A stretch of 64,000 nt of DNA from Desulfobulbaceae bacterium (GTDB lineage Bacteria; Desulfobacterota; Desulfobulbia; Desulfobulbales; Desulfocapsaceae), in assembly GCA_011390165.1 (NCBI GenBank), contig JAABSV010000001.1, positions 35,890 through 99,889 on the forward strand. Direction: 5' to 3'. The position numbers and the translations under genes were made by a program. The notes under the pieces were generated by a model. The model searched no databases. It saw only the letters and a program-made list of their open reading frames with translations, and was not told the DNA's origin. Positions 33,814-52,190 of the stretch are shown in pieces; the stretch's first letter is position 1, and each line of letters begins with the position of its first letter.

Positions 33814-33818
33814 TGTGC

Positions 33819-33981
33819 GTAACCGTTGACCAGCACACCATTTTCGCCCGGTCAAGCCACCCCACACAGCCAGCACCTTGAAAGAAGAGCCGACTCTAGC
33901 TCGGCGGCCTGTCTGAACGAACCGGGAGCACTGGCTGAACGGTTACAGGTCCGGGTTTTGCGCTCTTTTCCTGCATACCGG
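33819..33981 (+). repeat. Dispersed repeat element, copy 1
   Basis: About 160 bases closely similar to 45224-45387 and to the complement of 52028-52190. Shared blocks include TAACCGTT, AGC-ACCATTTT, GCCCGGTCA, CTGAACGAACC and CTGGCTGAACGG. A frame from TTG 33826 reads TSTPFSPGQATPHSQH, then CLNEPGALAER and FPAYR, and remains open. At the position where the other copies have the TGA stop, this copy has TCA (33982-33984), whose complement is the stop codon of the convergent glycosyltransferase gene. Confidence 0.85.
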
Positions 33982-36291
33982 TCAATGATTTCGCCTGTGC
34001 TGCCTCTCTCTGGCCGCCAACAGGACGGAATAGAACTCAAGGGTTTGTTCACACATGGCCTGGGCAGTAAAACTGGCCAGTACCCGCTGTCGGCCATTCT
34101 CCCCAAAGCGGCGCAGTTCAGCCGGATCCATGGCCAGGGCCTGATCGATGGCCAGAGCCAGACCGCTTGGATCGGAAGGTTTGACCAGCCAGCCGTTCTG
34201 ACCCGGCACCACCGTTTCCAGGCTGCCACCATGGGCGGTGGCAATCACCGGCCGACCCATCGCCATCGCCTCCACTGTCGTTCGCCCGAAGGCTTCCGGT
34301 TCGAGAGAAGAGGTGGAAAGGACCACATCGGCGAGAAGAAAGGCGGCCGGCATATCGGCACAGTGGCCGACACAAAAGACCCTGTCGCCCAGCTGATTGC
34401 TCTGGATAAAAGCAGAAAGTTCAGAAAAATACCCCGTGTTTTCAGAGGTATCTCCCACCAGGACAGCTTGATAGCAAGTATTTTTGAGAAGCAGCAGACT
34501 CTTCAGGAAGATCTCCTGCCCCTTCAGGCGAGTCAACCTTCCCGGCAGCATCAGCAGCGGAACTTCTGCCACCACCCCCCAGGCCTGGCGGAGTGCCTCG
34601 CACCGCTCCCGGCCCACCTTGGCCGGGTCAAAGGATTCAGCGTCGACTCCCCGGAATATGAGCCGGACATTTTTCTCCCGTTGATAGTTTTCCCGAATAT
34701 GTCGACGAATACTCTCGGAAATGGCAATCACCCCGTCCCCTTTGGTCATGATCGCACTGTAGACGTTTACTGAATAGAAGCCATGAAAGGTGGTTACCAG
34801 CACCGGCCGGAGGCGGGAGGGGAGGCTCTTCCAGGCAGCATACCCTATCCAGGCGGGCATTCGCGAACGGAGGTGGAGAACGTTGACTCCCTCCTTTTTC
34901 AGCAGACGGCGCAAGGGCCAGATATGGAGGAGGGCGGCCGGGCTTTTCGAGCCGATCCCCTTGCGGATATGATGGCTCCCTTCCTCCTCGAGTTGTTTCA
35001 CCAGTCGACCGCCGGCGGAGACGACCAGTGAGCGGTGGCCGTTACGGACCAGATGTCTACCCATCTCCAGAGTGCCCCGCTCGACCCCACCACTGTTCAG
35101 TTCCGGAAGCAACTGCATGACGGTGTAACAGTTTTTTTGCCGGATTTTGCATCTCTCGGCATGGGTCGACAGATAGAGGTCAACCGTTTTTTCGCACATG
35201 GTCAGGGCAGTGAACCGCTCTCCAACCCAGAGTTGCCCCTCTTTGCCGCGCCGACTGGTTTCCTCGGGGTGGGTGATCGCCTCGCGCAGAGCATCGGCCA
35301 TCCCCTGCGGGTCGAGGGGGGGGACCAGCCAGCCGGTGATCCCTGGAACCACCGTCTCCAGACTACCGCCATGGGCGGTGGCAATCACCGCCCGCCCCAT
35401 GGCCATCGCCTCGATGGCAACCTTGCCGAAGGCCTCCGGTTGGGTGGAGGAGGCGGAAACCACCACATCAGCCAGCGTCAGCGCTGCCGGCATGTCCCGA
35501 CAATGCCCAGCCAGAATCACCTTCTTTTCCAGACCATGGAACCGGATCCGCTCAGCCAGTTTTCGGGTGAAGACCGGGTTTTCTTCGGTATCGCCGATGA
35601 GCAGGCTGACAAATTCAAGGTCCGGCAGCAGGGCAAGGCTTTCGATCAGGACATCCTGTCCTTTCCAGCCGGTTAGACGACCAGGCAGGATCACCACCGG
35701 TTTACCGGCATAGCCGGCCAGCCACTTCTCCCGCAAGGGGGCGATGCGTTCTTCGGTCACCGCAGCCGGCGAGAACTCCTCGACGGCAAACCCGCCGTGG
35801 ATCAGCTGTATCCGTTCCGGGGCGATCCGATAGTTGGCAATGATATGCTCTCTGATCGTTTCCGACACCGCCACCACCCGTTCCCCTTTGGTCATGATGG
35901 AGGAGTAGGCGTTGACCGAGTAGAAGCCATGAAAGGTGGTGATCAGTGCCGGCCGGACAGCCTCCGGCAAAGTGCGCCAGGCCAGATAGCCGATCCAGGC
36001 AGGGAGACGGGAGCGAAGATGAACGATGTCAATCTCTTCTTCAAGAAAAAAACGGCGCAGTTTCGTGACGTACTGCAGACAACGGAGATTCTTTTCACCG
36101 ATATGCGGCCAATGGATATGCCGACAGCCGGCGGCCAGCAATTGCGGTACCAACCGGCCACCGCCGGAGATGACCATCGATTGGTATCCCTGTTGGGCCA
36201 GGTAGATGGCCAGATCAAGGGTTTCCCCCTCCACCCCCCCCTCATCGAGTTCGGGGAGAATCTGTACAATTTTAAGTATATTGCTGTCCAT
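33982..36291 (-). CDS. Tandem two-module GT4 glycosyltransferase
   Basis: A 769-residue protein made of two homologous GT-B modules, about 1-385 and 389-769. Each starts with a QLLPEL/QILPEL-x3-GGVE segment, then HLRSRxPAWIGYxAW, TTFHGFYSVN, LPGRLT-KGQ and a family 4 E-x7-E motif (QPEAFGKVAIEAMAMG at about 285-300 and EPEAFGRTTVEAMAMG in module 2). GT4 enzymes transfer sugars from nucleotide donors, here probably in LPS or cell-surface glycan assembly. No membrane segments are seen. Module 1 has GGVEGET where module 2 has GGVERGT. Internal duplication within one gene is unusual. Confidence 0.88.
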   Translation of the reverse strand: MDSNILKIVQILPELDEGGVEGETLDLAIYLAQQGYQSMVISGGGRLVPQLLAAGCRHIHWPHIGEKNLRCLQYVTKLRRFFLEEEIDIVHLRSRLPAWIGYLAWRTLPEAVRPALITTFHGFYSVNAYSSIMTKGERVVAVSETIREHIIANYRIAPERIQLIHGGFAVEEFSPAAVTEERIAPLREKWLAGYAGKPVVILPGRLTGWKGQDVLIESLALLPDLEFVSLLIGDTEENPVFTRKLAERIRFHGLEKKVILAGHCRDMPAALTLADVVVSASSTQPEAFGKVAIEAMAMGRAVIATAHGGSLETVVPGITGWLVPPLDPQGMADALREAITHPEETSRRGKEGQLWVGERFTALTMCEKTVDLYLSTHAERCKIRQKNCYTVMQLLPELNSGGVERGTLEMGRHLVRNGHRSLVVSAGGRLVKQLEEEGSHHIRKGIGSKSPAALLHIWPLRRLLKKEGVNVLHLRSRMPAWIGYAAWKSLPSRLRPVLVTTFHGFYSVNVYSAIMTKGDGVIAISESIRRHIRENYQREKNVRLIFRGVDAESFDPAKVGRERCEALRQAWGVVAEVPLLMLPGRLTRLKGQEIFLKSLLLLKNTCYQAVLVGDTSENTGYFSELSAFIQSNQLGDRVFCVGHCADMPAAFLLADVVLSTSSLEPEAFGRTTVEAMAMGRPVIATAHGGSLETVVPGQNGWLVKPSDPSGLALAIDQALAMDPAELRRFGENGRQRVLASFTAQAMCEQTLEFYSVLLAARERQHRRNH

Positions 36292-36394
36292 ATCCTGAGG
36301 AAACGGGTCAATCCCCTGGCAAATCGCCTTCAGCCCGGGGAATGGCGGTGGAATTCAATCCTGGCGGCTGCGGTGGCGGCGACAGGCGTTTTGT

Positions 36395-37339
36395 TTACCG
36401 GGCCAGCAGTTCGAGGATACACTCGGCACAATGGCTGGCCTCGTTACGGTACTGCCCGGTCTGCCAGTCGACCTGGTCTCTCTCCCAACTCAAAAAGGAA
36501 CGGGCGAGGCCGCGGCTCAGCAGCACCTCCTGATTGCGTTGGAATTTGTTCTTCGATCGCCGCCAGGGCAACGGCAAAATACCAAGACGACAACCGGCGG
36601 CCAGGGCTTCATACATCATCGAGATCGAATCGGCGGTCACCCAGGCGACACTGCTCTCCCGGTAGCGCTCTTCGATCCAGCCGGGACCGGTATCCGAATA
36701 GGCAAAAAAGGCGGTATTGGCATGGGCCCTGGCGAGAGCGGCAAGGAGGCTCACCGTCTCGGCAGGAGTCCGGGGGGAGGCGGCGATCACCCAGCTGCGC
36801 CTGTCACTGGTGACGATCGTCTCCACCATCCGGAGCACCTCCGTGCCCTGCCAGGAGTGGCTGGCCGGATCAACCCCCCCGATCAGAACCAGCCCTTTTC
36901 CCTCCTGGTGTTCTCCCAGGTCAAGGAGGCAATTTGGGGCTCCGAGGGTAAGGACGATGTTGCCACCGGCCGGCAGACCGTCGTGCACCGGGACAAAACA
37001 GAGATCAAAGCCACCGCGCAGATGCCATCCGGGGCTCATGCAGGTTACCGCCGGTATCCGGTACCTTTTTTTGTACAGCAGCAAGGGCAGATGGGTACTG
37101 CTGCCGGTGCCAATCAGCAGCTCGGCATCAGCCAGCTCCGGCCGGGAAAGACCCAGCCCGGGCAACCGGCAGCGACAGCTCTCTACCAGCCGGCGCAAGG
37201 GGGAGGGGCGTTCGACCGGAATTGTGCTAAGACGGACATCAAGCCGCCGGCCAAGGGCCTCGACCAAACCCAGGGTCTGTTTTTCGTGACCGGGTCGACC
37301 ATCCAGGAGGGCGGCGACGTGCAGCCGGTCGAGCGTCAT
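36395..37339 (-). CDS. ELM1/GtrOC1-like putative glycosyltransferase (DUF1022 type)
   Basis: A 314-residue protein with the family's N-terminal LLDGRPGHEKQTLGLVEAL, then ELLIGTGSSTHLP, FDLCFVPVHDG and IGGVDPAS. The C-terminal half has the GT-B-like WVTADSISMMYEALAAGC. Members of this group (mitochondrial fission ELM1 and bacterial homologues) are predicted glycosyltransferases without a proven substrate. The ATG at 37339 is chosen because it removes a proline-rich stretch overlapping the upstream gene; the ribosome binding site is weak. It precedes the tandem glycosyltransferase on the same strand, so the two probably serve one glycan. Confidence 0.8.
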   Translation of the reverse strand: MTLDRLHVAALLDGRPGHEKQTLGLVEALGRRLDVRLSTIPVERPSPLRRLVESCRCRLPGLGLSRPELADAELLIGTGSSTHLPLLLYKKRYRIPAVTCMSPGWHLRGGFDLCFVPVHDGLPAGGNIVLTLGAPNCLLDLGEHQEGKGLVLIGGVDPASHSWQGTEVLRMVETIVTSDRRSWVIAASPRTPAETVSLLAALARAHANTAFFAYSDTGPGWIEERYRESSVAWVTADSISMMYEALAAGCRLGILPLPWRRSKNKFQRNQEVLLSRGLARSFLSWERDQVDWQTGQYRNEASHCAECILELLAR

Positions 37340-37406
37340 CGCCGGGGCCGGCGGGAACCAGGTAAGAGGCCCGGACCACCGTACCGGCCAGCGGAGGTTC
37401 TGTTCT

Positions 37407-39653
37407 TCATGATCGGGAGGCAACGGCGGTTGCCGGTGGCGGACGCCGCACCGCGCCACCGGCCAGTTTGACAATAATCTGGTTCGACTTCTGCAGTCGC
37501 CTGGTCATGGTCTTGAACAGATGGCGGGAAACATCGGGGTATTTCTCGATAACCTCCTCAAGCTTGTTTCCGGGGTAGCGTTTCACCGTCGAACGGCCCT
37601 GGGAGATGATGGAAGCGGTCCGCTGTTCGCCCGTGATTGCCGCCATTTCACCGAAGAACTCTCCCGGCTCGGTGAGTTCGGCAATCTTCTTCCCCCCCTT
37701 GATGACGGTCAGTGCGCCTCGAATCAGCTTGAAGAAATCCCTGTCCTTATTGCCTTCACGGATAATCACATCACCGTCCTCGTAATTCTCCTCGTCCGGA
37801 TTGACCATATAGGCGGGCAGACTCTCCTTGTGGGCAACCGTGCGGCGTAACGCCTCATCGACACTGGTGATTCCCTCCCGGACCTTCTGCAGGGCAGCAT
37901 CACGGAGGGGGGTCATCCCCTCCTGGATAGCAATCTTGCGCAACTGGTCCTCCGGTACCTCGGCGTTGATTGCCTTGGCCACCTCGTCGGTCACCTCCAT
38001 CAATTCGAAAAAGCCAACCCGGCCCTTGTACCCAAGGTTGTTGCAGACCGGACAGCCGACCGGCCCGTATACCACCAGGTCGGCCACCTCATCTTCGCGA
38101 AAGCCGACCTTGATCAACTCTGCCGGGGAGTACTCTTGAGGTTTTTTACACTGTTGGCAGAGCCGCCGACCAAGACGCTGGGAAAGGACCATGCTCACCG
38201 AAGAAGCAAGCATATAGGGGGGAATACCGATATCGACCAGCCGGCCGATGGTGGCAGGACTGTCATTGGTGTGGAGGGTGGAGAAGACCAGGTGACCGGT
38301 CATCGCCGCCTTGATGGCGATCTCGGCCGTCTCGATGTCACGGATCTCCCCCACCATGATGATATCCGGGTCCTGGCGGAGAAAGGCCTTCAAGGCGGCG
38401 GCGAAGGTCATCCCCACCTCCTGATGGACATTGACCTGATTGATCCCCTTGAAGTTGAACTCCACTGGATCCTCGGCCGTAAGGATCTTGATATCCTCGC
38501 TGTTCATCGAGTTGAGGGCGGAGTAGAGGGTGACCGTCTTGCCGGAGCCGGTCGGCCCGGTTACCAGCAACAACCCCTGCGGTTGGCTGAGGCAGCGGCG
38601 GAGCATGGCAAAGGTCTCTTCGGCAAAGCCCAGCTTGGTCAGATCGACGTTCAAGGACGATTTGTCGAGAATCCGCAGAACCACCGATTCGCCATAGAGG
38701 GTCGGCAACGAGGAGACCCGGAAGTCCACTGATCGGTTACGGCCCATCCGCATCTTGATCCGGCCATCCTGGGGAACGCGCCGTTCGGTGATATCGAGGC
38801 CGGAGAGAATTTTCAGGCGGGCAACCAGGGCATTCTTGATCGCCATGGGGAGGTTCATCGACTTGAACAGCGAGCCGTCTTTGCGGTAACGGACCTGCAT
38901 GCTCTTTTCGTAGGGTTCGACGTGGATATCGGAAATCCCATCCTGAACTGCCTTGACCAGAATGCCGTTGACCAGTTTGATGATCGGCGCATCGGAGGCG
39001 GCGAATTGCTCGCCGATATCGTCGTCACCCTCGGCATCAATCTCAAAATCGTCGGCCGCTTCAGCGACGATGGAACCGAAATCGTCAACCTGGGTGATAT
39101 CCAGTTCCTCATCCACCTCATCCCGCACCCCGATAAAGGACTTGGCCTCCTCATCGTCGATTCCGAAGTACTTCTGGTAGGCCTCGATAATATCCGATTC
39201 GGTGGAGACACAGACCGAAAGCTCCCGATTGACCAGGTTCTGCAACTCTTCCACCGCCGTACTGTCGGAAGGTTCGACCATGGTCACCTGCAGGGTGCTG
39301 CCGGCAACCCGCAGGGGAAAGGCAAGAAAGCCCTTGGCTTGCTCGTAGGGGAGTAGCCGCAGCGCGTCCTTGGAGGGGGCCTCGTTCCTGATTACTATCG
39401 CCGGATAGTTGTGCTGTCGGCTGAGAAAGTTAAAAACGGTATTGTCGTCGATATACTCAAGTTGGCGAAGGATGGCACTGAGCCGGCCACCGCTTTTCTG
39501 CAGTATCTTTTTCGCGGTCTCCAGCTGGCTCGGGGTTATGTAACCGGCCTTGCTGAGCAGTTCGCCAATCTTCACTCGACCGGCACCGGACTGGTCCTTG
39601 ACGGTCTTCTTCATCGAGGATTTTCGATCTGCGAGGGGACTGCGAAGCGCCAT
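37407..39653 (-). CDS. PilB/GspE-type assembly ATPase with C-terminal cNMP-binding domain
   Basis: A 748-residue protein. An N-terminal MshEN/GspE domain (about 25-165) is followed by an acidic linker (about 166-215) and a secretion ATPase core with SDIHVEP, Walker A GPTGSGKT at 366-373, AEDPVEF, GEIRD and a paired-cysteine zinc site (CQQC and CPVC). Residues about 625-735 form a cyclic-nucleotide-binding domain (YEDGDVIIREG, GEFFGEMAAITGEQRTASI). PilB-like ATPases power type IV pilus or type II secretion assembly. The cNMP domain suggests nucleotide-dependent control. No other pilus gene is nearby. A start at the internal ATG at residue 14 is possible. Confidence 0.92.
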   Translation of the reverse strand: MALRSPLADRKSSMKKTVKDQSGAGRVKIGELLSKAGYITPSQLETAKKILQKSGGRLSAILRQLEYIDDNTVFNFLSRQHNYPAIVIRNEAPSKDALRLLPYEQAKGFLAFPLRVAGSTLQVTMVEPSDSTAVEELQNLVNRELSVCVSTESDIIEAYQKYFGIDDEEAKSFIGVRDEVDEELDITQVDDFGSIVAEAADDFEIDAEGDDDIGEQFAASDAPIIKLVNGILVKAVQDGISDIHVEPYEKSMQVRYRKDGSLFKSMNLPMAIKNALVARLKILSGLDITERRVPQDGRIKMRMGRNRSVDFRVSSLPTLYGESVVLRILDKSSLNVDLTKLGFAEETFAMLRRCLSQPQGLLLVTGPTGSGKTVTLYSALNSMNSEDIKILTAEDPVEFNFKGINQVNVHQEVGMTFAAALKAFLRQDPDIIMVGEIRDIETAEIAIKAAMTGHLVFSTLHTNDSPATIGRLVDIGIPPYMLASSVSMVLSQRLGRRLCQQCKKPQEYSPAELIKVGFREDEVADLVVYGPVGCPVCNNLGYKGRVGFFELMEVTDEVAKAINAEVPEDQLRKIAIQEGMTPLRDAALQKVREGITSVDEALRRTVAHKESLPAYMVNPDEENYEDGDVIIREGNKDRDFFKLIRGALTVIKGGKKIAELTEPGEFFGEMAAITGEQRTASIISQGRSTVKRYPGNKLEEVIEKYPDVSRHLFKTMTRRLQKSNQIIVKLAGGAVRRPPPATAVASRS

Positions 39654-39892
39654 GATCTACCCTTTAGCAAAAGATTGGTACACCGTCGACATCAAGCCAG
39701 AAGAGGCAGGAAAGCGAGTGCCCATCGGCGACCGGGAGAGTGGCGAAATCGACCACCCGGCGGGACGAGGGGGGGGCGGTCAGAAAAGTAGGTTTGCGCC
39801 AGGCCCGGGGCTTCCGCTACCGATAGCTGCAATATAAACCATACTCATGGCAATCTTTAAAGAAAATCCTTACCAGAGAGGCGCAAACAGAC
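39654..39892 (-). other. Long upstream region of the PilB-cNMP gene
   Basis: About 240 bases without a credible gene. Read on the minus strand, it contains a GC-rich segment with ATCGGTAGCGGAAGCC followed by GGCGCAAACC, an eight-C run near 39770-39780, and a purine-rich GGGTAGATC before the ATG. I compared it with the c-di-GMP (GEMM) riboswitch consensus and could not fit it. No clear -35/-10 pair was found. Confidence 0.35.
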
Positions 39893-39922
39893 AAAAAAAC
39901 CGGTAGCTGAAATGGCTACCGG
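39893..39922 (-). terminator. Rho-independent terminator after thyX
   Basis: CCGGTAGC at 39900-39907 and GCTACCGG at 39915-39922 form a perfect 8-bp stem with a seven-base loop. On the minus strand the stem is followed by seven Ts (39893-39899). It ends the nifU-nifS-thyX transcript. Confidence 0.88.
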
Positions 39923-39966
39923 GTTGAGAAAACTCCCGCGCGGACAAGGTCTTTGAGCCGGAGGGC

Positions 39967-40890
39967 TCAGAGACAGGGGAATCTTTGGCGCATAGCCGCA
40001 GCCAGGGGGATCATGATCTGCCGCATTGACGGTTCAGCCCCGGCGGAGGTGCGCAGGGCCAGGATATGCCTCCATTCGGCGAGATTGCAGTAGACAATGA
40101 TCTCGGTTTTGCAGGAGTTGGGCAGCACAGTCCGCGCCGCCTGCGGAGAAGAGGTTTCCAGAAGCTTGAGATAGCGGTTTTCAGTCAGCTCCATGGCCTC
40201 CTGCCAGATGCGGTACTCGTCACTTTCCGGGTCAAAAAAGAGCGGTTTGATAAAGGTGACCTGGTTGGAGAACTTATCCTCGCTGTATCGGCAGTAGCGC
40301 TGACTTTCCTGAAGAAAGGAGCAGGGGCGGTGTCGCACCAGTTCGTGGGTCACCGCCCGGTTGACCACCATCCGGACACTGACAAAACGGTGGCGGAGGA
40401 GCAACTCCGCCGGCAGTTTTTCCACATCCGCCAGGGAGAGGCGAACGACCTCCACACCCTCGGGAAGAGGCGGCTGGTCGGCTGTCACCTGGCGGGCAAA
40501 GAGCTGCGGTTCTTCCGTGGCCAACTGGGCCACCATCGCCATCAGCAGCAGCCCCCCTTCCCTGTTGGCAGCGAGTTCTCGAAAGGCACGGATCGAGCCG
40601 GTCACCAGCAGGCCATCGTCGCTCTGGTCGATTACCAGGTACCTTGGCTGGGCAGCGAAGAGTTGCCGCTGCTCTTCCGGCCGACAGCGGAGACGAAAAT
40701 GGACCACCGCCATCTCCAGCACCGAGTTGTGGCCGTGCTCGGCGATCCGCTGAACAAAGGGGCGTGCCGAGCCAGGTTCTATTCGCTCCTCGCTGCGGTA
40801 ACAGATCCGCCCGCAGGCCTCGAGCCGCTCGGCCAGGGGCATACGGTCGAGATCGTCCTGAATGACAAAAAACGGTTCAATAACCAGCAT
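39967..40890 (-). CDS. thyX: FAD-dependent thymidylate synthase ThyX
   Basis: A 307-residue protein with the ThyX motif RHRPCSFLQESQRY (the RHR-x7-S signature). HGHNSVLEMAVVHF lies upstream and PNSCKTEIIVYCNLAEW near the C-terminus. It makes dTMP from dUMP using methylene-THF and NAD(P)H through FAD. At 307 residues it is longer than many ThyX proteins (about 220-250), with the extra sequence mainly between residues 90 and 160. It starts three bases after nifS and appears to be the last gene of the nifUS operon. Confidence 0.95.
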   Translation of the reverse strand: MLVIEPFFVIQDDLDRMPLAERLEACGRICYRSEERIEPGSARPFVQRIAEHGHNSVLEMAVVHFRLRCRPEEQRQLFAAQPRYLVIDQSDDGLLVTGSIRAFRELAANREGGLLLMAMVAQLATEEPQLFARQVTADQPPLPEGVEVVRLSLADVEKLPAELLLRHRFVSVRMVVNRAVTHELVRHRPCSFLQESQRYCRYSEDKFSNQVTFIKPLFFDPESDEYRIWQEAMELTENRYLKLLETSSPQAARTVLPNSCKTEIIVYCNLAEWRHILALRTSAGAEPSMRQIMIPLAAAMRQRFPCL

Positions 40891-40893
40891 TCT

Positions 40894-42911: not shown

Positions 42912-43070
42912 AGAGAACTCCAAGTTAAATAGATACGAGCAAACAGACGAGCTTCCACCTTCTGCCACCTCCGGCCAACCCGGCACCAGACCCTGAAGGT
43001 AAGTCAGAAAGCGGAAATTGCAACCATCGGGCCAGTCGCCGAGCCGCCCGGCGCCGCCCCTCAACAGACT

Positions 43071-44804: not shown

Positions 44805-44877
44805 CGTCCCCTCCTCTGGTCGGGTTTGCTTGCTGGTCGAGTTTTTTTACCTCCGGCATCCTCCGGCCGCTGCGGCT

Positions 44878-45066
44878 TCAGGAGCCGGGTTCTTCCGACA
44901 GTGGCAGGGCCTTCTCCACCAGCATTACCGGGATGCCGTCGCGGATCTCATACCAGAGCCGGCAGGCAGCACAGACCAACCCCTCGCCCTTTTCTCCGAT
45001 TTCCAGCCGCACCGGGCCCTTGCACTGTGGACAGGCAAGTATGGCCAGTAAGTCTTCATCTATCAT
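44878..45066 (-). CDS. Trm112-like zinc-ribbon protein (UPF0434/YcaR type)
   Basis: A 62-residue protein with CPQC and CAAC pairs forming a zinc ribbon (LLAILACPQCKGPV and GLVCAACRLWYEIRDGIPVML). This is the normal length and pattern of the YcaR group, related to the eukaryotic methyltransferase activator Trm112. In enterobacteria it sits next to kdsB; here kdsB is far away and pgm follows. Function unproven, possibly a methyltransferase partner. Confidence 0.88.
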   Translation of the reverse strand: MIDEDLLAILACPQCKGPVRLEIGEKGEGLVCAACRLWYEIRDGIPVMLVEKALPLSEEPGS

Positions 45067-45438
45067 ATCGATTTCCGGTTCTCTTGATGGATTGTGTGCA
45101 GAGCGGGTCCGGCCTTTTCGGCCCCGACGGAGATAAAACCGGCCGACTCAGTTATACCGTTGTGGAAAAAGTACGAATCTGATATTTACCTGAAACCGAT
45201 CACGTTTGCACACCACTTTTTTTGCTAACCGTTCATCAGCCACCCATTTTCAGCCGGTCAGGCCCCCCCACAGAGCCAGCACCTCGAAAGAGCCAACTCT
45301 AGCTCGACGGCCAGCCTGAACGAACCCGGAGTACTGCCTGAACGGCCACAGACCCCGGTGCTGCAGACTTGTGCTGCCTGGCAGTGACCACTTACCTTTT
45401 TCCCTGTTCGACTCAATTCTCTTTTCAGCAGGTGGACC
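45067..45438. other. Intergenic region between the Trm112-like gene and proC
   Basis: A 372-base gap between divergent genes. Its right half holds copy 2 of the dispersed repeat (45224-45387). The left half contains a short CCGGCCTTTTCGGCCCC inverted repeat near 45110 and an A/T-rich stretch near 45180-45225 that could hold promoters, but no good -35/-10 pair. No credible gene is seen outside the repeat. Confidence 0.5.
45224..45387 (+). repeat. Dispersed repeat element, copy 2
   Basis: The sequence aligns with copy 1 from TAACCGTT onward, with one 3-base deletion that keeps the reading frame. The frame reads ISHPFSAGQAPPQSQHLERA, then SLNEPGVLPERPQ, and ends at TGA 45385-45387. It lacks a usual start codon (TTC ATC where copies 1 and 3 have TTG ACC or GTG ACC). 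It lies 51 bases upstream of proC. Confidence 0.85.
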
Positions 45439-46254
45439 ATGAACAAATTTATCGGTTTTGTCGGTGGCGGCCAGATGGCCGAGGCCCTGATCAGAGGGGT
45501 GATAGCCTCCGGCCTCTACCACAGCGACAATATTCTGGTCAGTGAACCCAACGACTTTCGCCGCGAGCATCTGGAAAAGACCTATGCGGTGCATACCTCT
45601 GCCGACAACCACGAGTTGTTTAGGCGGTGCCGGATCGTCATCCTGGCAGTGAAACCACAGACCATGAAAGCGCTGCTCGAAGAGTGCCGCGAACGGGTCG
45701 GTGAACAGCACATCCTGGTCACAGTGGCTGCCGGCCTGCCGATCTCTTTTTACCAGAAGACGGTTGGGCGCGAGGGACTGAAGGTTATCCGAGCCATGCC
45801 CAACACCCCGGCCCTCGTCCTGGAAGGGGCGACCGCATTGAGCAGAAACGGCCATGTCAGCGAAGAGGAACTCCTTGAGGCGGAGGAGATTTTTCTGGCG
45901 GTGGGCGAAGTGGTCCTGCTCGACGAGGTCCATCTTGATGCGGTGACCGGTCTGAGCGGTTCCGGGCCGGCCTACGTCTTCTCCTTCGTCGAGGCCTTGA
46001 TTGATGCCGGAGTGAAATCCGGTCTTACCCGGGCAGTCTCGGAAAAACTGACCCTGCAGACCGTATCCGGTTCGGTCAAACTGCTCAAGGAGAGCGGCGA
46101 GCACCCGGCTGCCCTGCGTGGCAAGGTCACCTCACCCGGCGGCACCGCCATCACCGCTCTGCACGTCCTGGAGAAGGCCGGCTTCCATGGGATGATCATG
46201 GATATCGTCGAATCGGCTGTGGTTCGTTCCCGGCAACTGGGTCAGGTGGAATGA
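45439..46254 (+). CDS. proC: Pyrroline-5-carboxylate reductase
   Basis: A 271-residue enzyme for the last step of proline synthesis. It has an N-terminal Rossmann loop FVGGGQMAEALIRG, VILAVKPQ, VRAMPNTPA-like IRAMPNTPALV, and the C-terminal signature VTGLSGSGPAYVFSFVEALIDAGV and TSPGGTAITALHVLE. Length is normal. The ATG follows AGGTGG. The gene overlaps nadK by four bases. Confidence 0.96.
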   Translation: MNKFIGFVGGGQMAEALIRGVIASGLYHSDNILVSEPNDFRREHLEKTYAVHTSADNHELFRRCRIVILAVKPQTMKALLEECRERVGEQHILVTVAAGLPISFYQKTVGREGLKVIRAMPNTPALVLEGATALSRNGHVSEEELLEAEEIFLAVGEVVLLDEVHLDAVTGLSGSGPAYVFSFVEALIDAGVKSGLTRAVSEKLTLQTVSGSVKLLKESGEHPAALRGKVTSPGGTAITALHVLEKAGFHGMIMDIVESAVVRSRQLGQVE

Positions 46255-47138
46255 GTTCCCTCTTCCCGTTCCGCCGCCAGATACGGCTCGCTCTCCGCCA
46301 GGTCGCCCTGATCACCAAGAAGGAGGATGCCCGGGCGGAAACCTATGCCACCACCCTCAGTGAGTGGCTGCGGCAGCGAGGGGTCGAAGTGCAGTTGAAC
46401 CGGATCAACTCCGGTCAGGAGATGGTTATTGTCCTCGGTGGTGACGGTACCCTGCTCCATATCGCCGAAAACGCCGCCCGCCACGCCATCCCGGTCCTGG
46501 GTATCAACCTCGGCAACCTCGGTTTTCTCACTGAACTGACCGAAGGGGAAACCCTCGGCGTCCTTGAGCAGATTTTGAACGGCCCGGTCACCGTCGAAAA
46601 CCGCCTGATGCTGAAAACCCGCCTGCTCCGGGATGGCCGGCCAAGCGCCTACCGCTACGCCTTAAACGATGTGGTGATCAGCAAGAATGTTGTTGACCGG
46701 CTGCTCAATCTCACCGCCACCGCCGACCTGGAGTACATCACCACCTATCGGGCAGACGGCTTGATCTTCTCCTCTCCCACCGGGTCGACCGCCTACAACC
46801 TCTCTGCCGGCGGCCCGCTGGTCTACCCCGGTCTGGCCACCATCACCGTTACCCCGATCTGCCCCTTCATGCTCAGCAGCAGGCCCATCATCCTGCCCGC
46901 CGAAAAAAGGATTACCACCCGCTTTGCCAGCAACCACCGGGCCGGCAAAGCGGAGATTATCGTTGACGGGCAACCGGTCTGGGAGATGGTTCCGGGCGAT
47001 GAACTGCAGGTGGCCACCGCCCGCCACCCGCTCCAGTTGATCGTCTCCTCCGGCCGTGACTATTTCAGCATCGTCCGCAACAAACTCCACTGGGGGATTT
47101 CCGGTACCGATCAATCCCCGGTCACCTCTTCTTGCTGA
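46251..47138 (+). CDS. nadK: NAD kinase
   Basis: A 295-residue enzyme that phosphorylates NAD to NADP. The catalytic GGDGT is at 63-67, followed by GINLGNLGFLTE, LNDVVI and SPTGSTAYNLSAGGPLVYP. It starts on an ATGA shared with the proC stop. Its last 17 bases overlap the convergent response-regulator gene. Confidence 0.95.
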   Translation: MSSLFPFRRQIRLALRQVALITKKEDARAETYATTLSEWLRQRGVEVQLNRINSGQEMVIVLGGDGTLLHIAENAARHAIPVLGINLGNLGFLTELTEGETLGVLEQILNGPVTVENRLMLKTRLLRDGRPSAYRYALNDVVISKNVVDRLLNLTATADLEYITTYRADGLIFSSPTGSTAYNLSAGGPLVYPGLATITVTPICPFMLSSRPIILPAEKRITTRFASNHRAGKAEIIVDGQPVWEMVPGDELQVATARHPLQLIVSSGRDYFSIVRNKLHWGISGTDQSPVTSSC

Positions 47139-48516
47139 TCCGGTATTTCTTCATTTTGTACTGCAGAAGGCTCTTGGTAATCCCCAATTTTTCTGCGGCC
47201 CTGGCCTGAACATAGTCAGTATCGTACAGCGCCCGGACGAGCATCTTCTTTTCCACCGCATACAACACATCGTTGAGCCCGACATCCTCGGGGAGCAACT
47301 GCTGCAGATCGAGATCGCTGTCCCAACTCGGTCGTTCCTCGCCGTAGAGGGTCTCCGGCTGGACATCCTCCGCCTCTATCCGGTCGTTGGCGCAAAGGAC
47401 GGCGGCCCGCTCGATGGTGTTCTCCAACTCACGGATATTCCCCTCCCAGGGGAGACGGAGAAGGAGTTTGACCGCCTCAGGGGAGATACTCAGCGCCGGT
47501 CTTGCCAATTCCTGACGGTACTTGTCGACGAAATAATCGGTCAGCAGGGGAATATCGTCCATCCTCTCCCGCAGGGCCGGCAGGTGCACCGGAATAACAT
47601 TGAGCCGATAAAAGAGATCCTCACGAAAACTGCCGGTGGCCACATCCTCGCGCAGATCCCGGTTGGTGGCACTGATAATCCGCACATCCACCTCGATGGT
47701 GGTGCTCCCCCCTACCCTTTCAAAGTTCTTCTCCTGCAGAACCCGGAGCAGTTTCGCCTGAACCGAGGGGGGGATGGCGCCAACCTCGTCAAGAAAGACG
47801 GTGCCACCATCGGCCTGTTCGAGACGCCCTTTGCGCATCGCCACCGCGCCAGTGAAGGCCCCCTGTTCGTGGCCGAACAGTTCGCTCTCCAGGAGATTCT
47901 GGGAGAGGGCGGCACAGTTGACGGCGATAAAGGGCTGCGCCTCCCGTGGCGAGTTGAGGTGAATCGCCTTGGCCACCAGTTCCTTGCCGGTACCGCTCTC
48001 GCCGGTAACCAGCACCGCAGCCTGGGTCGGTGCCACCTTTTCGATTAACTGGTAGACCTGAAGAATTTTCTCATTCTTGCCGATCATCCCGGAAAAGCCG
48101 GTTGTGCTGCGAATCTGGTCGCGCAGCCGGCTGTTTTCCCGGATCAGCGAATAGTGGTGCGCCGCCTTGCGCAGGGTGACAATCAACTCATCATTGGAAA
48201 AGGGTTTGGCGAGATAGCTGAAGGCCCCGGCCTGCATTGCCGCCACCGCCTTGTCCACCTCGGCAAAGGCGGTGATGACGATCACCGGCAGATCCTTCTT
48301 TTTTTCTTTCACCCTAGCCAGCAGTTGCAAACCGTTGATCCCCGGCATCTGCATATCGGTGACCACCAGGTCAAGGTCGACATTATCGACTACTGCCAGG
48401 CCGGCCTCACCGTCTGCGGCGGTAAACACCTCGAAACCTTCGTCCTGGAGAAGTTCGGAAAGGACGACAAGATAGTTCGGCTCATCGTCAACCACAAGGA
48501 TCGAAACCCTGCTCAT
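47122..48516 (-). CDS. NtrC-family sigma-54-dependent response regulator
   Basis: A 464-residue protein with an N-terminal receiver (phospho-acceptor D54 in VVTDMQMPG, lysine in YLAKPF). The AAA+ domain has Walker A GESGTGKE at 172-179 and the sigma-54 contact loop GAFTGA at 219-224. A C-terminal Fis-type helix-turn-helix has AAEKLGITKSLLQYKMKKY. It should activate sigma-54 promoters after phosphorylation. The ATG at 48516 follows AAGGGG. No histidine kinase is adjacent. A PHP phosphoesterase gene lies 16 bases upstream on the same strand. Confidence 0.95.
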   Translation of the reverse strand: MSRVSILVVDDEPNYLVVLSELLQDEGFEVFTAADGEAGLAVVDNVDLDLVVTDMQMPGINGLQLLARVKEKKKDLPVIVITAFAEVDKAVAAMQAGAFSYLAKPFSNDELIVTLRKAAHHYSLIRENSRLRDQIRSTTGFSGMIGKNEKILQVYQLIEKVAPTQAAVLVTGESGTGKELVAKAIHLNSPREAQPFIAVNCAALSQNLLESELFGHEQGAFTGAVAMRKGRLEQADGGTVFLDEVGAIPPSVQAKLLRVLQEKNFERVGGSTTIEVDVRIISATNRDLREDVATGSFREDLFYRLNVIPVHLPALRERMDDIPLLTDYFVDKYRQELARPALSISPEAVKLLLRLPWEGNIRELENTIERAAVLCANDRIEAEDVQPETLYGEERPSWDSDLDLQQLLPEDVGLNDVLYAVEKKMLVRALYDTDYVQARAAEKLGITKSLLQYKMKKYRISKKR

Positions 48517-48532
48517 TACCAGCACCCCTTCA

Positions 48533-49378
48533 TCAAAGCCTCTGATCGAGACGTACTTTCAATAATGCCAGCACCTCGTTCGGCACCGCATTGTTTTTGC
48601 CACCGGCAAGGGTGGTCTGTGGGCGGATCGCCCCATGGTAATCACTTCCACCGGTGGCCAGGAGGCTGTGCCGCTCAGCAAGGGCCAGCATTTCCCGGCG
48701 CTGGCGGCGACTGTGAGTAGGATAATAAACCTCCAGGCCATCCAGGCCCAGCTGGCACCAGTGCGGCAGTTGGGCAGCGAGTAGAGAGGGTTCCGGGCAG
48801 GCCTGGAGGGGATGGGCAAGTACCGCCAGGCCACCGGCCTGATGGATCACCACAATTGCCTCGGCCAACTGCAGGAGAGGGCGGCTCCGGTAGGCCAGAC
48901 CATTTCGGCCAAGATAGAGACGAAAGGCCTCCTCGTGGCTGGCAACCGCCCCTATTTGCCGAAGAATGGCGGCAATGTGCGGCCGGCCACATTGACCGGG
49001 GCCGGCGACCTTGGCCAGTTCCTCAGCACTAATCCTGAACCCGAGATCGGTCAGAGTCTTGAGTATGGCAGCGTTCCGCGCTCTTCGCCCCTCCTGCAAC
49101 TGGCAAAGAGCCTGGTCGAGGACGACGCTGGTCGGGTCGAAGCCGTAGGCAAGAAGATGGAGATGAAAGTCCTGCCAGCGGACACTCAACTCAAGGCCGG
49201 TAACCACCTCAACCCCGTACTCCTTTCCGGTTGCCACCGCCTCGGCGATACCGGCCACCGTGTCGTGGTCGGTGATGGCAATCGCCGGCAATCCTTTTTG
49301 CCTGGCCAGCCGAACCAGTTCCGAGGGCGTCATGCTGCCGTCAGAGAAGGTAGAATGGATATGCAGATCAATACTCAT
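48533..49378 (-). CDS. PHP-domain phosphoesterase (TrpH/RnmM-like)
   Basis: A 281-residue PHP protein with the metal-binding motifs DLHIHSTFSDGS, ITDHDT and GLELS, and a late GGSDYHG. Family members such as TrpH hydrolyse 3',5'-nucleoside bisphosphates or trim RNA ends; which activity applies here is not visible. Length is typical. It is the first gene of a pair with the sigma-54 regulator and is divergent from a lipoprotein gene. Confidence 0.88.
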   Translation of the reverse strand: MSIDLHIHSTFSDGSMTPSELVRLARQKGLPAIAITDHDTVAGIAEAVATGKEYGVEVVTGLELSVRWQDFHLHLLAYGFDPTSVVLDQALCQLQEGRRARNAAILKTLTDLGFRISAEELAKVAGPGQCGRPHIAAILRQIGAVASHEEAFRLYLGRNGLAYRSRPLLQLAEAIVVIHQAGGLAVLAHPLQACPEPSLLAAQLPHWCQLGLDGLEVYYPTHSRRQRREMLALAERHSLLATGGSDYHGAIRPQTTLAGGKNNAVPNEVLALLKVRLDQRL

Positions 49379-49393
49379 CGTGGGCCAGGGTCG

Positions 49394-49410
49394 AAGGGAA
49401 TATTTCCCTT
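49394..49410. promoter_or_regulatory. Operator-like palindrome between divergent genes
   Basis: AAGGGAA at 49394-49400 and TTCCCTT at 49404-49410 form a perfect 7-bp inverted repeat around TAT, 16 bases upstream of the PHP gene start. The size and position suit a dimeric repressor site, but no regulator can be assigned. Confidence 0.45.
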
Positions 49411-49469
49411 TACTTTTTTACCATCCGTCCGATACAGTTGCACAGTTACACAATCAGTGGAGAAATGCA

Positions 49470-50312
49470 ATGCGTCACCCATGCCGATCCTTTTTGCCTC
49501 TTTGTAGTCGTCAACGTCCCTTTCCCTGTCCTTATCCCCGGACCCATCTCCTTACCACCGCCCTGCTCACCCTTCTCCTGGCCACCGCAGCCTGCACCGC
49601 ACGAATTCCCGAGCCGATCAGCCACCCCTACAGCCAGCAGGAAAAGATGCAGGCATCCGGACACTGGGACATCCTCGCCCAGGATCTGGCCAACCGGATC
49701 AACAACCAATTGATCCGCACCAACCATCTCCACAGCCCGATCTTTGTCGAGCAAACCTGCGGTGACGAGAAGAAAAACTGCTCGCCCGAGGAGACCAGCC
49801 CGTTCAACGAAGCCTTTCGTGACCTGCTGATCACCAGCCTGGTCGACCACGGCATTCCCACCCGACACCAGCCTGACGACCAGGCCATCGAGGTGCTCTA
49901 CAAGGTGCAGGTGGTCCGCCACCATGGGGAACGGATCCGTACCCTGCAACCCGGGCTGCTCACCGCCCTCGCCGCCGGCATCGTTGTCCTCCGCAATGCT
50001 CCCGCTGATATCGTTCTCCTTGCCGCCGGCACCGCAGCCGATGTCGCCAACAGCAGTTTGAACCGCCATGGCCACTACGAAGTGATCATCACCACCTCAA
50101 TGCTTGCCGACGACAACTACCTCTTCCGGGCATCGGATATCTACTATATCAACGACCGTGATTTCTGGCATTACGAAGAAAACCGGCTCACCCCGAAGAC
50201 CATCCGGCTGACCAGTGCCGGCCATTCAGCAAAGGGGGGGACTTCCGCGCCGGTGGCAAAGAAACCGGCTGGGGAAGTGGCCACTGCGCCGGTGGATGGA
50301 CAGGCCCTGTAA
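49470..50312 (+). CDS. Hypothetical lipoprotein next to the FlgO-like gene
   Basis: A 280-residue protein. Its long N-terminal region contains a signal-like stretch with a lipobox ending L-A-T-A-A-C about 40 residues in. The mature part has DILAQDLANRINNQL, an internal hydrophobic patch (GLLTALAAGIVVL, ADIVLLAAGTA) and YYINDRDFWHYEENRL. The C-terminus is Ala/Pro/Gly-rich. I do not recognise the family. The ATG at 49470 follows GGAGA. It is followed by another lipoprotein gene of the FlgO family, so the two may act together at the outer membrane. Confidence 0.7.
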   Translation: MRHPCRSFLPLCSRQRPFPCPYPRTHLLTTALLTLLLATAACTARIPEPISHPYSQQEKMQASGHWDILAQDLANRINNQLIRTNHLHSPIFVEQTCGDEKKNCSPEETSPFNEAFRDLLITSLVDHGIPTRHQPDDQAIEVLYKVQVVRHHGERIRTLQPGLLTALAAGIVVLRNAPADIVLLAAGTAADVANSSLNRHGHYEVIITTSMLADDNYLFRASDIYYINDRDFWHYEENRLTPKTIRLTSAGHSAKGGTSAPVAKKPAGEVATAPVDGQAL

Positions 50313-50355
50313 TCATCCCCTGGCCTCACCTCCGGAAAAGGGGAGAGACCCTCGC

Positions 50356-50420
50356 CACCACCAAAAGTGACAAATGGTGGTGTGACCCGGCCGGTACCCC
50401 TCGGAGTTCAGCCAACTCCG
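50356..50420 (+). other. Two stem-loops in the leader of the FlgO-like gene
   Basis: CACCACC at 50356-50362 pairs with GGTGGTG at 50376-50382. CGGAGTT at 50402-50408 pairs with AACTCCG at 50414-50420 around a five-base loop. They lie between two lipoprotein genes and just before the GGAGGT ribosome binding site of the second. No U-tract follows either stem. Confidence 0.4.
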
Positions 50421-50449
50421 TGCATCTTGTTCACAGGAGGTCACTCGAG

Positions 50450-51100
50450 ATGACTGCCTCTCCCCCCCACCGCCCCCGCAGTAACGGGAGACGGTGGACT
50501 TTGTCGATCCTCCTTCTGCCCCTCCTCTTCGGGGGCTGTGCGCAACTCAACTGCACTCCTCTGGAAAGGGTTCTGGGTGGGCCAACCAACCTGATCAATT
50601 TTGCCTACCGGATCACCGACAACCTCAGCTACCAGGCCATACCACCACTGCTCCCCAACTATCCGGCAATGCCAATACTGGTCACCACCTTTGTCGACAA
50701 CAACGATCTTGAACAGACCAGCAATTTCGGCAGGATCCTTCAGGAACACATCAGTTCCCGGCTGGTGCAATTGGGCTATGCGGTTCGGGAGATAAAGATT
50801 GCTCAAACCCTGGAAATTACCCCCCGTTCCGGGGAAACCATCCTCAGCCGTGATCTCTCGCGGATCAGTGCTGATCAGCCGGCCCAGGCAATTCTGGTCG
50901 GCACCTACGCCCGCAGCAATCGGGTTCTCTACATCTCGGCCCGGCTGATCAACCCGAAGGACAACACCATCATTGCCGCTGATGACCACCGACTCTGCAT
51001 GGATGACGAACTTCTGGCAATGTTTGGCCTGCAGCGGCGGTCGCCGGTCGATGAGCCGATACGCGACCCCGGTCGCCCCTTACTCAACTCAGTTCTGTAG
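50450..51100 (+). CDS. FlgO-family outer-membrane lipoprotein
   Basis: A 216-residue lipoprotein with signal segment WTLSILLLPLLFGGC (lipobox F-G-G-C). A FlgO domain follows with ILVTTFVDNNDLEQTSNFGRILQEHISSRL, AQAILVGTY and VLYISARLINPKDNTIIAADD. In Vibrio, FlgO is an outer-membrane protein linked to flagellar stability and motility. No flagellar gene lies in this window, and FlgO-domain proteins occur in other envelope contexts. The ATG at 50450 follows CAGGAGGT. Confidence 0.82.
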   Translation: MTASPPHRPRSNGRRWTLSILLLPLLFGGCAQLNCTPLERVLGGPTNLINFAYRITDNLSYQAIPPLLPNYPAMPILVTTFVDNNDLEQTSNFGRILQEHISSRLVQLGYAVREIKIAQTLEITPRSGETILSRDLSRISADQPAQAILVGTYARSNRVLYISARLINPKDNTIIAADDHRLCMDDELLAMFGLQRRSPVDEPIRDPGRPLLNSVL

Positions 51101-51113
51101 AAGAACGTCAGCG

Positions 51114-51950
51114 ATGCCCCTCACCGGCCGTACCCTCCTCCTCCCCGGGGCCGCCCGGGCCATCGGCAGGGCCATTGCCCGCCGTTTTGCCGACCGGGGG
51201 GCGCGGCTGGTCCTGCCGGTGTACGACTGGCCGGAAGCGGTAGACGAGATGGCCGGGGAGTTTCGGGACAAGCGCTACAACTGCCTGATTGTCCACGCCG
51301 ACCTCCGCAAGGAGGAGGACGCCGCCATGCTGGCCGAAAAAATTTCCGCCGAATACGGCTCGCTTGACTACCTCGTCAACAACATAGAACGGGGGGGGAT
51401 GCCGGTGGTGCACGGTGGCTACCATCTCCCCGCCAACCGAGGGCAATGGGACCTCGAGTTCAACACCAGCCTGAAGGCCAAGTGGCTGCTTTTCAGCCAT
51501 TGTTACCCCCTTATGGCCGGGCGGAGCGGCAGCGCCGTGGTCAACCTTTCCTCCATAGCCGCCAGCACCGGTCGCAGCGGCGCAACCGCTGCCCTGTTCA
51601 GTGACGGCTACAGTGCCGCCAACCGCGGCGTCCGGACGTTGACGGAAACCTGGGCCAGACAGGCGGCACCCCATACCCGGGTAAACGAACTGGTGCTCGG
51701 GCTGGTGCGGGGGCGGCATGGCGAGGGGACACGGGGCTGGGCCTGTCTTGCCGAAAACGAGCAGGAGGCCATTGTAGAGAGCATCCCCCTGCAGCGCACC
51801 GGCCTGCCGGAAGAGGTTGCTGAAGCGGTCTATTTTCTCGCCGTGGAGGCTGCCTACATCACCGGAGCCAGCCTACTGCTGGACGGTGGCCTGCATCTCG
51901 GCCCGAACAGGGTACCTCCCATCCCTCCGGGGGTTGTCGCTGACGACTGA
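51114..51950 (+). CDS. SDR-family protein lacking the catalytic lysine
   Basis: A 278-residue classical short-chain dehydrogenase fold with nucleotide loop GAARAIGRA (12-20), NN at 89-90, the serine in NLSSIAAS and Y166. The usual Y-x3-K reads Y-S-A-A-N, with N170 in place of lysine. It has the common SDR ending AAYITGASLLLDGGLHLG. Without the lysine normal SDR chemistry is doubtful; the protein may be regulatory or use an altered mechanism. The substrate is unknown. The ATG at 51114 is preceded only by a weak AGAAG. It starts 13 bases after the FlgO-like gene. Confidence 0.85.
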   Translation: MPLTGRTLLLPGAARAIGRAIARRFADRGARLVLPVYDWPEAVDEMAGEFRDKRYNCLIVHADLRKEEDAAMLAEKISAEYGSLDYLVNNIERGGMPVVHGGYHLPANRGQWDLEFNTSLKAKWLLFSHCYPLMAGRSGSAVVNLSSIAASTGRSGATAALFSDGYSAANRGVRTLTETWARQAAPHTRVNELVLGLVRGRHGEGTRGWACLAENEQEAIVESIPLQRTGLPEEVAEAVYFLAVEAAYITGASLLLDGGLHLGPNRVPPIPPGVVADD

Positions 51951-52027
51951 AGGTGCAGCCCGAACCTGAACAGACAAGGGGCACCAGGCAAAAGAGCAGT
52001 TGCCGATACGCGACAAGTCGTACTCGT

Positions 52028-52190
52028 TCAGCGGTAGGCAGCAAAAGGCTGTAGGACCCGGATTCGTTCCCGTTCAGCCAGTTCCCCAAGTTGGTTCAGG
52101 CAGGTTGCCAGGCCTAGAGCTGTATCTGTGCGGTGTTTGCTCTGTGAGGTGGCCTGACCGGGCAAAAATGGGGTGCTGGTCACCGGCTAC
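52028..52190 (-). repeat. Dispersed repeat element, copy 3 (opposite strand)
   Basis: The complement matches copies 1 and 2. On the minus strand TAG-CCG-GTG-ACC-AGC opens a frame from GTG 52183 to TGA 52028 (51 codons) reading TSTPFLPGQATSQSKH, then CLNQLGELAERERIRVLQPFAAYR. The element starts about nine bases after the stop of the HEAT-like gene on the same strand. Relative to copy 1 it has an in-frame one-codon length difference. Confidence 0.85.

What the first reader, a model, noticed from the sequence alone, without database searches (positions are those of the whole stretch)
33819..52190. Dispersed element of about 160 bp in three copies with a conserved open frame of about 50 codons
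Copies lie at 33819-33981 (+), 45224-45387 (+) and 52028-52190 (-), each between genes. All three begin with an in-frame stop followed by CCG and a TTG, GTG or TTC codon. Length differences are whole codons, and several differences are synonymous (CAA/CAG, CTT/CTC, TGT/TGC, GGA/GGG). The shared frame reads roughly PF-PGQA...S-H...LN--G-L-ER--VL. The opposite strand is also open in all copies, so the coding strand is not proven. It may be a spreading small-protein gene or a mobile RNA/DNA element not matching a class I know.
Basis: partly seen in the sequence, partly recalled or inferred. Interest (0 to 1): 0.72.

Follow-up and report, generated by a model that had tools for sequence, protein, structure and literature searches.

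The report
Three-ended IS66-type miniature transposon family
The three copies belong to a large family of very short, gene-less jumping DNA elements that spread through the genomes of sulfate-reducing bacteria and their relatives, probably with help from a larger transposon's enzyme; they are not small-protein genes.

Summary
The repeat is real, but it is not a gene. The three copies (33819-33992 +, 45225-45395 +, 52020-52190 -) belong to a dispersed family with at least 81 matches in this genome (scoring stops at 81). [quoted passage not shown] Ends read GTAAnCGTTCACC, and the flanks agree at a spacing of exactly 8 bp (83 copies: 41 match at 7 or 8 of 8; 0.24% of re-paired flanks do). Window copy 1 has a perfect duplication. 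The same end motif bounds IS66-family transposons in related genomes, three of four with a DruA-like gene. The protein reading fails: among 28 copies, lengths are not whole codons, 20 hit early stops, and codon positions change equally. The unusual feature is a recurring plan: a palindromic core of about 108-128 bp with an end at each side, plus a tail of about 45 bp carrying a third end. The inner end can also serve as a terminus (two perfect duplications). In one complete genome the core arms co-vary strongly. This is a new variant of a known kind. The mobiliser is inferred, not shown.

The parts
33811..33818 (+). Target-site duplication, left copy (GCCTGTGC) of element 1
   Evidence: 8/8 identical to 33993-34000
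33819..33992 (+). MITE copy 1, 174 bp, GTAACCGTTGACC...GTCAATGATTTC
   Evidence: Profile R1 157.8 bits, full length (the copy is one of the 46 sequences of the model); ends and duplication
33819..33946 (+). Palindromic core of copy 1 (L end to inner end ...GCTGAACGGTTAC)
   Evidence: Self-hit on opposite strand; inner end located
33947..33992 (+). Right tail of copy 1 with the third (R) end
   Evidence: Alignments
33993..34000 (+). Target-site duplication, right copy (GCCTGTGC)
33982..36291 (-). Two-domain glycosyltransferase gene whose stop codon lies inside the R end of copy 1
   Evidence: Translation ends ...RERQHRRNH* within the element; Pfam PF00534 and PF13439, two stretches each
45225..45395 (+). 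MITE copy 2, 171 bp, between a divergent Trm112-like gene (start near 45066, -, named by eye from the translation) and proC (45439, +)
   Evidence: R1 132.5 bits; flanks TTTTTTTG/CTTTTTCC match 5/8; P5CR domain by Pfam
45225..45349 (+). Palindromic core of copy 2
   Evidence: inner end ...CTGAACGGCCAC read
52020..52190 (-). MITE copy 3, 171 bp, on the minus strand, between ORFs that converge (50973-51950 + and 52199-53053 -)
   Evidence: R1 136.9 bits; flanks TTTTTTTC/GACTTGTC match 4/8; ORFs
52066..52190 (-). Palindromic core of copy 3
   Evidence: Opposite-strand self-hit 52066-52190

Best explanation
The repeat is a non-autonomous miniature transposon (MITE) with IS66-type ends. A DDE transposase of the IS66 family, supplied in trans, most likely by a two-gene IS (DruA-like protein plus IS66 DDE), binds the GTAAnCGTTCA[CG]C ends, moves the 150-175-bp unit into intergenic DNA and leaves an 8-bp duplication. 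The unit carries three ends: L and inner face each other as the two sides of a palindromic core, and R lies about 45 bp beyond inner. L+R is the usual pair and L+inner a rare alternative. In the window genome the mobiliser seems lost (IS66 fragments, no DruA match; the assembly is 91% complete) and the copies are decaying. Shown: family, ends, duplications, architecture, non-coding nature, no clear upkeep of the palindrome in the window genome, co-varying core arms in one relative. Inferred: that the IS66/DruA element is the mobiliser, and the transposition steps.
For: 8-bp duplication: mean flank identity 0.703 at k=8 against 0.269 (sd 0.019, max 0.319) in 200 re-pairings; k=7 and k=9 give 0.355 and 0.344. 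41 of 83 copies match at 7 or 8 of 8, against 0.24% of re-paired flanks; own genome 13 of 34. G027, ends chosen without regard to flanks: 34 of 51. In one search, which picked the end pair with the best flank match, G026 gives 15 of 20 and G027 11 of 18 at 7-8 of 8. IS66 elements with the same end motif: L064 (2414 bp, duplication ATTTTATT 8/8) and L065 (1712 bp, 8/8); L196 in the same genus (2458 bp) has GTAACCGTTCACCGGG at both ends and L177 has GTAACCGTTCAGC / GTAATCGTTCACCGGT, though these two lack a duplication. Pfam PF14236 and PF03050; NF033517 over its cut-off for L196, L177 and L064. MITE-rich G003 has two DruA matches with the end GTAACCGTTCACCGGGATTTTAATCA about 370 bp away (L227, L228). 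Motif GTAAYCGTTCACC occurs in 15 of 27 genomes, the reversed control only twice in all. Profile hits in 24 of 37 genomes. Own genome: three PF03050 pieces, none intact, no PF14236. Inner end as terminus with 8/8 duplication: L149 and L280:13147. Three-end plan: L083 (G000), L081 (G013), L074 (G026), L075 (G030); G003 copies; G026 and G027.
Against: Mobiliser not found in several copy-rich genomes: the complete G027 has one IS66 gene without matching ends nearby and no DruA match; G026 has no IS66 match and one DruA match; G029 has neither; G014 has no relative of the L196 DDE at E 0.01. L196 and L177 show no target duplication. Of 30 DruA loci fetched, 7 hold an end with the motif at 0 mismatches in the held flank, and two of these ends look like MITE copies instead (L208, L213). 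Two of the three window copies have flanks matching only 5/8 and 4/8. No empty site was seen: among the listed matches of the L127 region in five other genomes, none continued across the flanks (list cut, 40 candidates scored per genome). No transposition has been observed.
Confidence: 0.85

Rival explanations
1. A spreading small-protein gene of about 50 codons.
Against: Of 28 copies: length mod 3 is 11/10/7, 20 have a stop before codon 45, a usable start in 2, equal change at the three codon positions, synonymous share 0.240 against 0.268 expected.
Confidence: 0.02
2. A REPIN-like element moved as a folded single strand by a REP-associated tyrosine transposase (RAYT).
For: Palindromic core with compensatory changes, as reported for REPINs in PMC3116915 (passages read); Y1 transposase matches in 8 of 8 copy-rich genomes tested.
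Against: Precise 8-bp target duplication, which Y1 transposition is not known to make (recalled). Of 8 Y1 loci, one holds a clear IS66-type end (L302); five others hold only looser matches that I take for chance. Two of three Y1 genes examined (L304, L305) are flanked by unrelated inverted repeats of 25-33 bp; the third (L303) has a separate hairpin on one side.
Confidence: 0.06
3. A MITE moved by a different, unidentified DDE transposase with 8-bp duplications and GTAA ends.
For: Copy-rich genomes without an IS66/DruA pair, including a complete one.
Against: The end motif is found at IS66 elements, with perfect 8-bp duplications at two of them; mobilisers are often lost after a burst (general knowledge).
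Confidence: 0.13
4. A cis-acting RNA or structured regulatory element kept by selection at each site.
For: Very stable fold; arms co-vary in G027.
Against: In the window genome arms pair hardly better within a copy (0.707) than between copies (0.701; 21 of 500 shuffles reach it; 28 copies), so little or no upkeep after insertion. RNAalifold on 46 copies gives -0.12 kcal/mol. Rfam: only a tRNA in the window.
Confidence: 0.04

Closest known systems
Prokaryotic MITEs in general (e.g. Chunjie of Geobacter uraniireducens; review PMC10969869, part 1 of 6 and some passages read)
   Same: Under 500 bp, terminal inverted repeats, direct-repeat target duplications, dozens of intergenic copies with partial and decayed ones; per the review Chunjie has 38 copies of 178-235 bp and 57 partial ones.
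   Different: Three ends instead of two, co-varying palindromic core, order-wide spread. The Chunjie sequence could not be compared: its paper is not held.
IS66 family of insertion sequences
   Same: GTAA ends and 8-bp duplications (family hallmarks, recalled); the candidate mobiliser encodes an IS66 DDE transposase.
   Different: The element encodes no protein; the candidate mobiliser pairs the DDE gene with a DruA-like gene (PF14236).
REPINs (Bertels and Rainey 2011, PMC3116915, passages read)
   Same: Two inverted conserved ends around a hairpin with compensatory changes; non-autonomous and extragenic.
   Different: 8-bp target duplication, IS66-type ends, a third end on a tail, no clear link to a RAYT gene.
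Multicopy nucleotide sequences of Geobacter bemidjiensis (PMC2996986, passages read)
   Same: Some families are palindrome-based and lie in intergenic regions.
   Different: No sequence comparison was possible; the main text does not mention IS66 (0 occurrences).

Membership tests
MITE | Short (<500 bp) and non-coding | tested here: met
   34 of 36 full copies are 148-184 bp; no conserved frame
MITE | Terminal inverted repeats | tested here: met
   GTAAnCGTTCACC / GGTGAACGnTTAC at both ends
MITE | Target-site duplications | tested here: met
   8 bp only; 41 of 83 at 7-8 of 8
MITE | Multiple dispersed copies, mostly intergenic | tested here: met
   81 of 81 scored matches in own genome; in G027 2 of 72 overlap a predicted gene by more than 60 nt (home-made gene caller). 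Not tested genome-wide in the window's genome
MITE | Mobilised in trans by an autonomous element with matching ends | tested here: inconclusive
   Matching IS66/DruA elements in G012 and G046, one end with DruA in G003, none in the own genome; no assay
IS66 family (as mobiliser class) | Ends start GTAA, 8-bp duplication (recalled) | tested here: met
IS66 family (as member) | Encodes IS66 transposase (PF03050) | tested here: not met
   Element is non-coding; hence a derivative, not a member
REPIN / RAYT system | RAYT gene flanked by the same repeat | tested here: not met
   8 Y1 loci checked, 1 with a clear IS66-type end, 5 with looser matches only; L304 and L305 carry other inverted repeats
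REPIN / RAYT system | Compensatory changes in hairpin arms | tested here: met
   17 of 44 pairs with double changes against 7.6 shuffled, G027
Small-protein gene | Frame kept and purifying selection on codons | tested here: not met
Rfam RNA family | Match at gathering score | tested here: not met
   Only a tRNA at 62558-62630

The most novel reading that the evidence does not exclude
The core is recognised as a folded single strand (RNA or single-stranded DNA) during spread, so that a DDE-type MITE depends on a hairpin much as REPINs do, with L and inner ends coupled by folding and R free. For: in G027 base 5 of L and inner agree in 50 of 51 copies with four base types, while L and R agree in 7 of 51 (chance level); 11 of 11 representative cores from nine genomes keep a two-base wobble at one place and a purine-purine mismatch at another on the same strand (two bases in 9, one base in 2). 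Against: the same strand skew of mismatches is present, more weakly, in decaying copies of the window genome (56 to 24), so part of it is probably mutational; subfamily descent and arm-to-arm correction of the palindrome would also explain the coupling.
Probability: 0.17. Interest if true: 0.72.

Novelty: new variant of a known kind. Interest (0 to 1): 0.43.

Why it matters
The family accounts for many intergenic repeats in Desulfobulbales genomes, where it could be miscalled as small genes or RNAs. Its recurring three-end plan and co-varying core give a concrete test case for how a gene-less element keeps its structure while it spreads, and for how it spread in genomes where no mobiliser is now visible. 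The candidate mobiliser couples an IS66 transposase to a relative of DruA, a protein of the Druantia anti-phage system, which hints at a transposon-linked role for that family.

Tried and rejected
Small protein: rejected. Known RNA family: no match. RNAalifold consensus over 46 copies: nearly nothing (-0.12 kcal/mol), perhaps because gappy and decayed copies dominate; model R1 built on it has 5 base pairs and acts as a sequence profile. Selection for the hairpin after insertion in the window genome: not supported. Tree of base-5 changes: 12 changes, but only 6 of 48 inner branches are well supported, so the number of independent events is uncertain; on supported branches only 1-2 independent pairs per comparison. 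Autonomous elements between convergent ends in G026: ORFs listed, none recognised by eye as a transposase; no family search was run on them. End pairs 250-6000 bp apart in the held loci (1749 pairs; hits from 230 bp up): perfect duplications at L064 and L065 (IS66 genes) and at four small units of 232-320 bp, one of them the MITE copy with an insert in L123. Empty site: none seen (cut list). RAYT as mobiliser: not supported. Viral contigs: one hit, not followed. Literature: nothing on this repeat or on an IS66 MITE in Desulfobulbales turned up in searches (open-access library only; listings, and passages or parts of five papers: PMC2996986, PMC10969869, PMC3189936, PMC8565338, PMC3116915).

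Rows dropped: one search kept 83 of 135 hits (both ends found, flanks of 16 nt or more, duplicates removed), and its automatic end choice took the inner end in several copies, window copy 1 among them, which lowers the count of matches. Alignment A1 holds 46 of the 62 references; 18 of 20 G027 stretches gave an element. G027 set: 51 of 72 cores had an R end 38-55 bp away, from 400 kb of 3.1 Mb chosen for many ends; 65 of 72 classified (2 overlap genes, 5 at edges).
Full report
WHAT WAS CHECKED. The three copies are real. A search of the own genome with copy 1 gave 40 scored matches from 98 candidates; a profile gave 81 matches of 81 scored, so the true number is at least 81. Exact limits in the window are 33819-33992 (+), 45225-45395 (+) and 52020-52190 (-). 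Alignment of 42 copies shows one element of mostly 150-180 bp with GTAnCCGTTCACC at the start and GTGAACGATTAC at the end.

NOT A GENE. Over 28 aligned copies of this genome, length modulo 3 is 11/10/7; 20 copies meet a stop before codon 45; the supposed start codon is TTC in 21 and ATG/GTG/TTG in 2; codon positions change at 0.136/0.133/0.123; the synonymous share is 0.240 against 0.268 expected. The open opposite strand follows from the palindromic core: profile hits fall on both strands.

IT IS A TRANSPOSABLE UNIT. In 83 copies with both ends and flanks (34 of this genome, 49 of others) the flanks agree at a spacing of exactly 8 bp: mean identity 0.703 against 0.269 in re-pairings, and 0.355 and 0.344 at 7 and 9 bp. 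32 of 83 are perfect and 9 more match 7 of 8; among re-paired flanks 0.24% reach 7 of 8. Copy 1 in the window has a perfect duplication, GCCTGTGC; copies 2 and 3 match 5 of 8 and 4 of 8. In G026, 12 of 20 sampled copies are perfect and some copies are identical in sequence; in G027, 7 of 18 (which picks the end pair with the best flank match). With ends chosen blind to the flanks, 24 of 51 G027 copies are perfect and 10 more match 7 of 8.

WHERE IT OCCURS. A degenerate pattern found 85 stretches in named genome records, titled Desulfobulbaceae, Desulfocapsa, Desulfopila, Desulfobia, one Desulfobacterales and one Deltaproteobacteria record. The profile matches 24 of 37 related genomes; most matches are in G000 (81, cap), G026 (81, cap), G027 (81, cap), G003 (73), G029 (69) and G014 (60). 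In bin10037 many copies sit at contig ends, as expected if near-identical copies broke the assembly.

THE PROBABLE MOBILISER. IS66-family loci in relatives carry the same end motif. L064 (2414 bp) and L065 (1712 bp) have matching ends and perfect 8-bp duplications; L196 (same genus, 2458 bp) has GTAACCGTTCACCGGG at both ends; L177 has GTAACCGTTCAGC and GTAATCGTTCACCGGT. The last two show no duplication. L064, L177 and L196 contain a DruA-like gene (PF14236) followed by an IS66 DDE gene; L065 has the DDE gene alone. In G003 two DruA matches lie about 370 bp from GTAACCGTTCACCGGGATTTTAATCA (L227, L228). The window genome, 91% complete, keeps three PF03050 pieces, none intact, and has no PF14236 match. 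Against this, copy-rich genomes lack the pair: G029 has neither family, G026 one DruA match and no IS66, the complete G027 one IS66 gene and no DruA, and G014 no relative of the L196 DDE.

THREE ENDS. The unit is a palindromic core (L end to inner end; about 108 bp in G026 and G027, 125-128 bp in the window copies) plus a tail of about 45 bp ending in R. The plan is seen in loci of G000, G013, G026 and G030, in G003 copies, and in G026 and G027. Duplications as a rule flank L and R. Two short forms end at the inner end with perfect duplications: L149 and L280:13147 (1 of 21 cores without R end). So the inner end can work as a terminus.

THE CORE CO-VARIES WHERE THE ELEMENT SPREAD RECENTLY, NOT WHERE IT DECAYS. 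In 51 G027 copies base 5 of L and inner agree in 50 (T, G, A and C all occur; shuffles mean 16.8, maximum 27), while L and R agree in 7 (shuffles 6.4). Over the whole core 17 of 44 pairs show double changes against 7.6 in shuffles and at most 5 when slid; 92 cells against 27.5. Subfamily descent explains part of this: base 5 needs 12 changes on a poorly resolved tree, and few of them are well supported. In the window genome arms pair hardly better within copies than between them (0.707 and 0.701; 21 of 500 shuffles reach it), as for dead copies. Mean pairwise identity there is 0.775.

STRAND SKEW. Between the two arms, mismatches that would be G.U pairs on the inner-to-L strand outnumber the opposite kind 64 to 12 over 11 representative cores of nine genomes; two wobble positions are shared by 11 of 11, and a purine-purine mismatch at one place by 11 of 11 (two bases in 9, one in 2). 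The skew is 43 to 8 in G027 and 56 to 24 in the decaying copies of the window genome, so a mutational cause is likely for part of it.

NEIGHBOURHOOD. In 400 kb of G027, 2 of 72 cores overlap a predicted gene; between tandem genes the L-to-R direction follows the genes in 27 of 37 cases (p = 0.008; home-made gene caller). In the window, copy 1 supplies the last codons and stop of a glycosyltransferase gene, copy 2 lies upstream of proC and copy 3 between convergent ORFs.

VERDICT. A MITE family with IS66-type ends and an unusual three-end plan; new variant of a known kind; mobiliser inferred.

Noticed in passing
L092, L110, L112, L116, L125, L132, L135, L139, L140, L145, L146, L157, L161, L163, L168, L170, L207: A second, much smaller dispersed sequence, GGAGTCTnCGCTTAnCTG (about 20 bp, one mismatch allowed), at 21 places in five genomes: inside MITE copies at differing sites and in both orientations, and also alone; a longer form sits in several G003 copies (seen by eye). 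REP-like, mobiliser unknown.
   Followed up: partly
L196:1704-4005, L177:159-2457, L064:1265-3576: A DruA-like gene (PF14236, family of the Druantia defence protein DruA) forms a two-gene insertion sequence with an IS66 DDE transposase; no paper of the library holds both DUF4338 and IS66. PADLOC's DruA model matches only one of the three, weakly.
   Followed up: partly
L138 and L123 (G003): A hairpin-like insert of about 60 bp sits at the inner end of two MITE copies with intact outer duplications.
   Followed up: no
L091:2301-2348: Beside a full copy lies a 32-bp mini-unit with both ends, inverted, that shares the 8-bp duplication CAATTTTT (by eye).
   Followed up: no
window 33742-33810: Short imperfect tandem repeat of ACCCATTCATT(A/G)GGCTGCG directly upstream of MITE copy 1 (by eye).
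   Followed up: no
window 34183-35957: Internal repeats (84% and 72% identity, spacing about 1140 bp) mark a glycosyltransferase with two tandem homologous halves.
   Followed up: partly
L304:908-1918, L305:1396-2485: Y1 transposase genes of RAYT-like length flanked by their own 25-33-bp inverted repeats in G027 and G026.
   Followed up: partly
L229:917-935: One viral contig carries the L-end motif GTAASCGTTCACCAGCACC.
   Followed up: no
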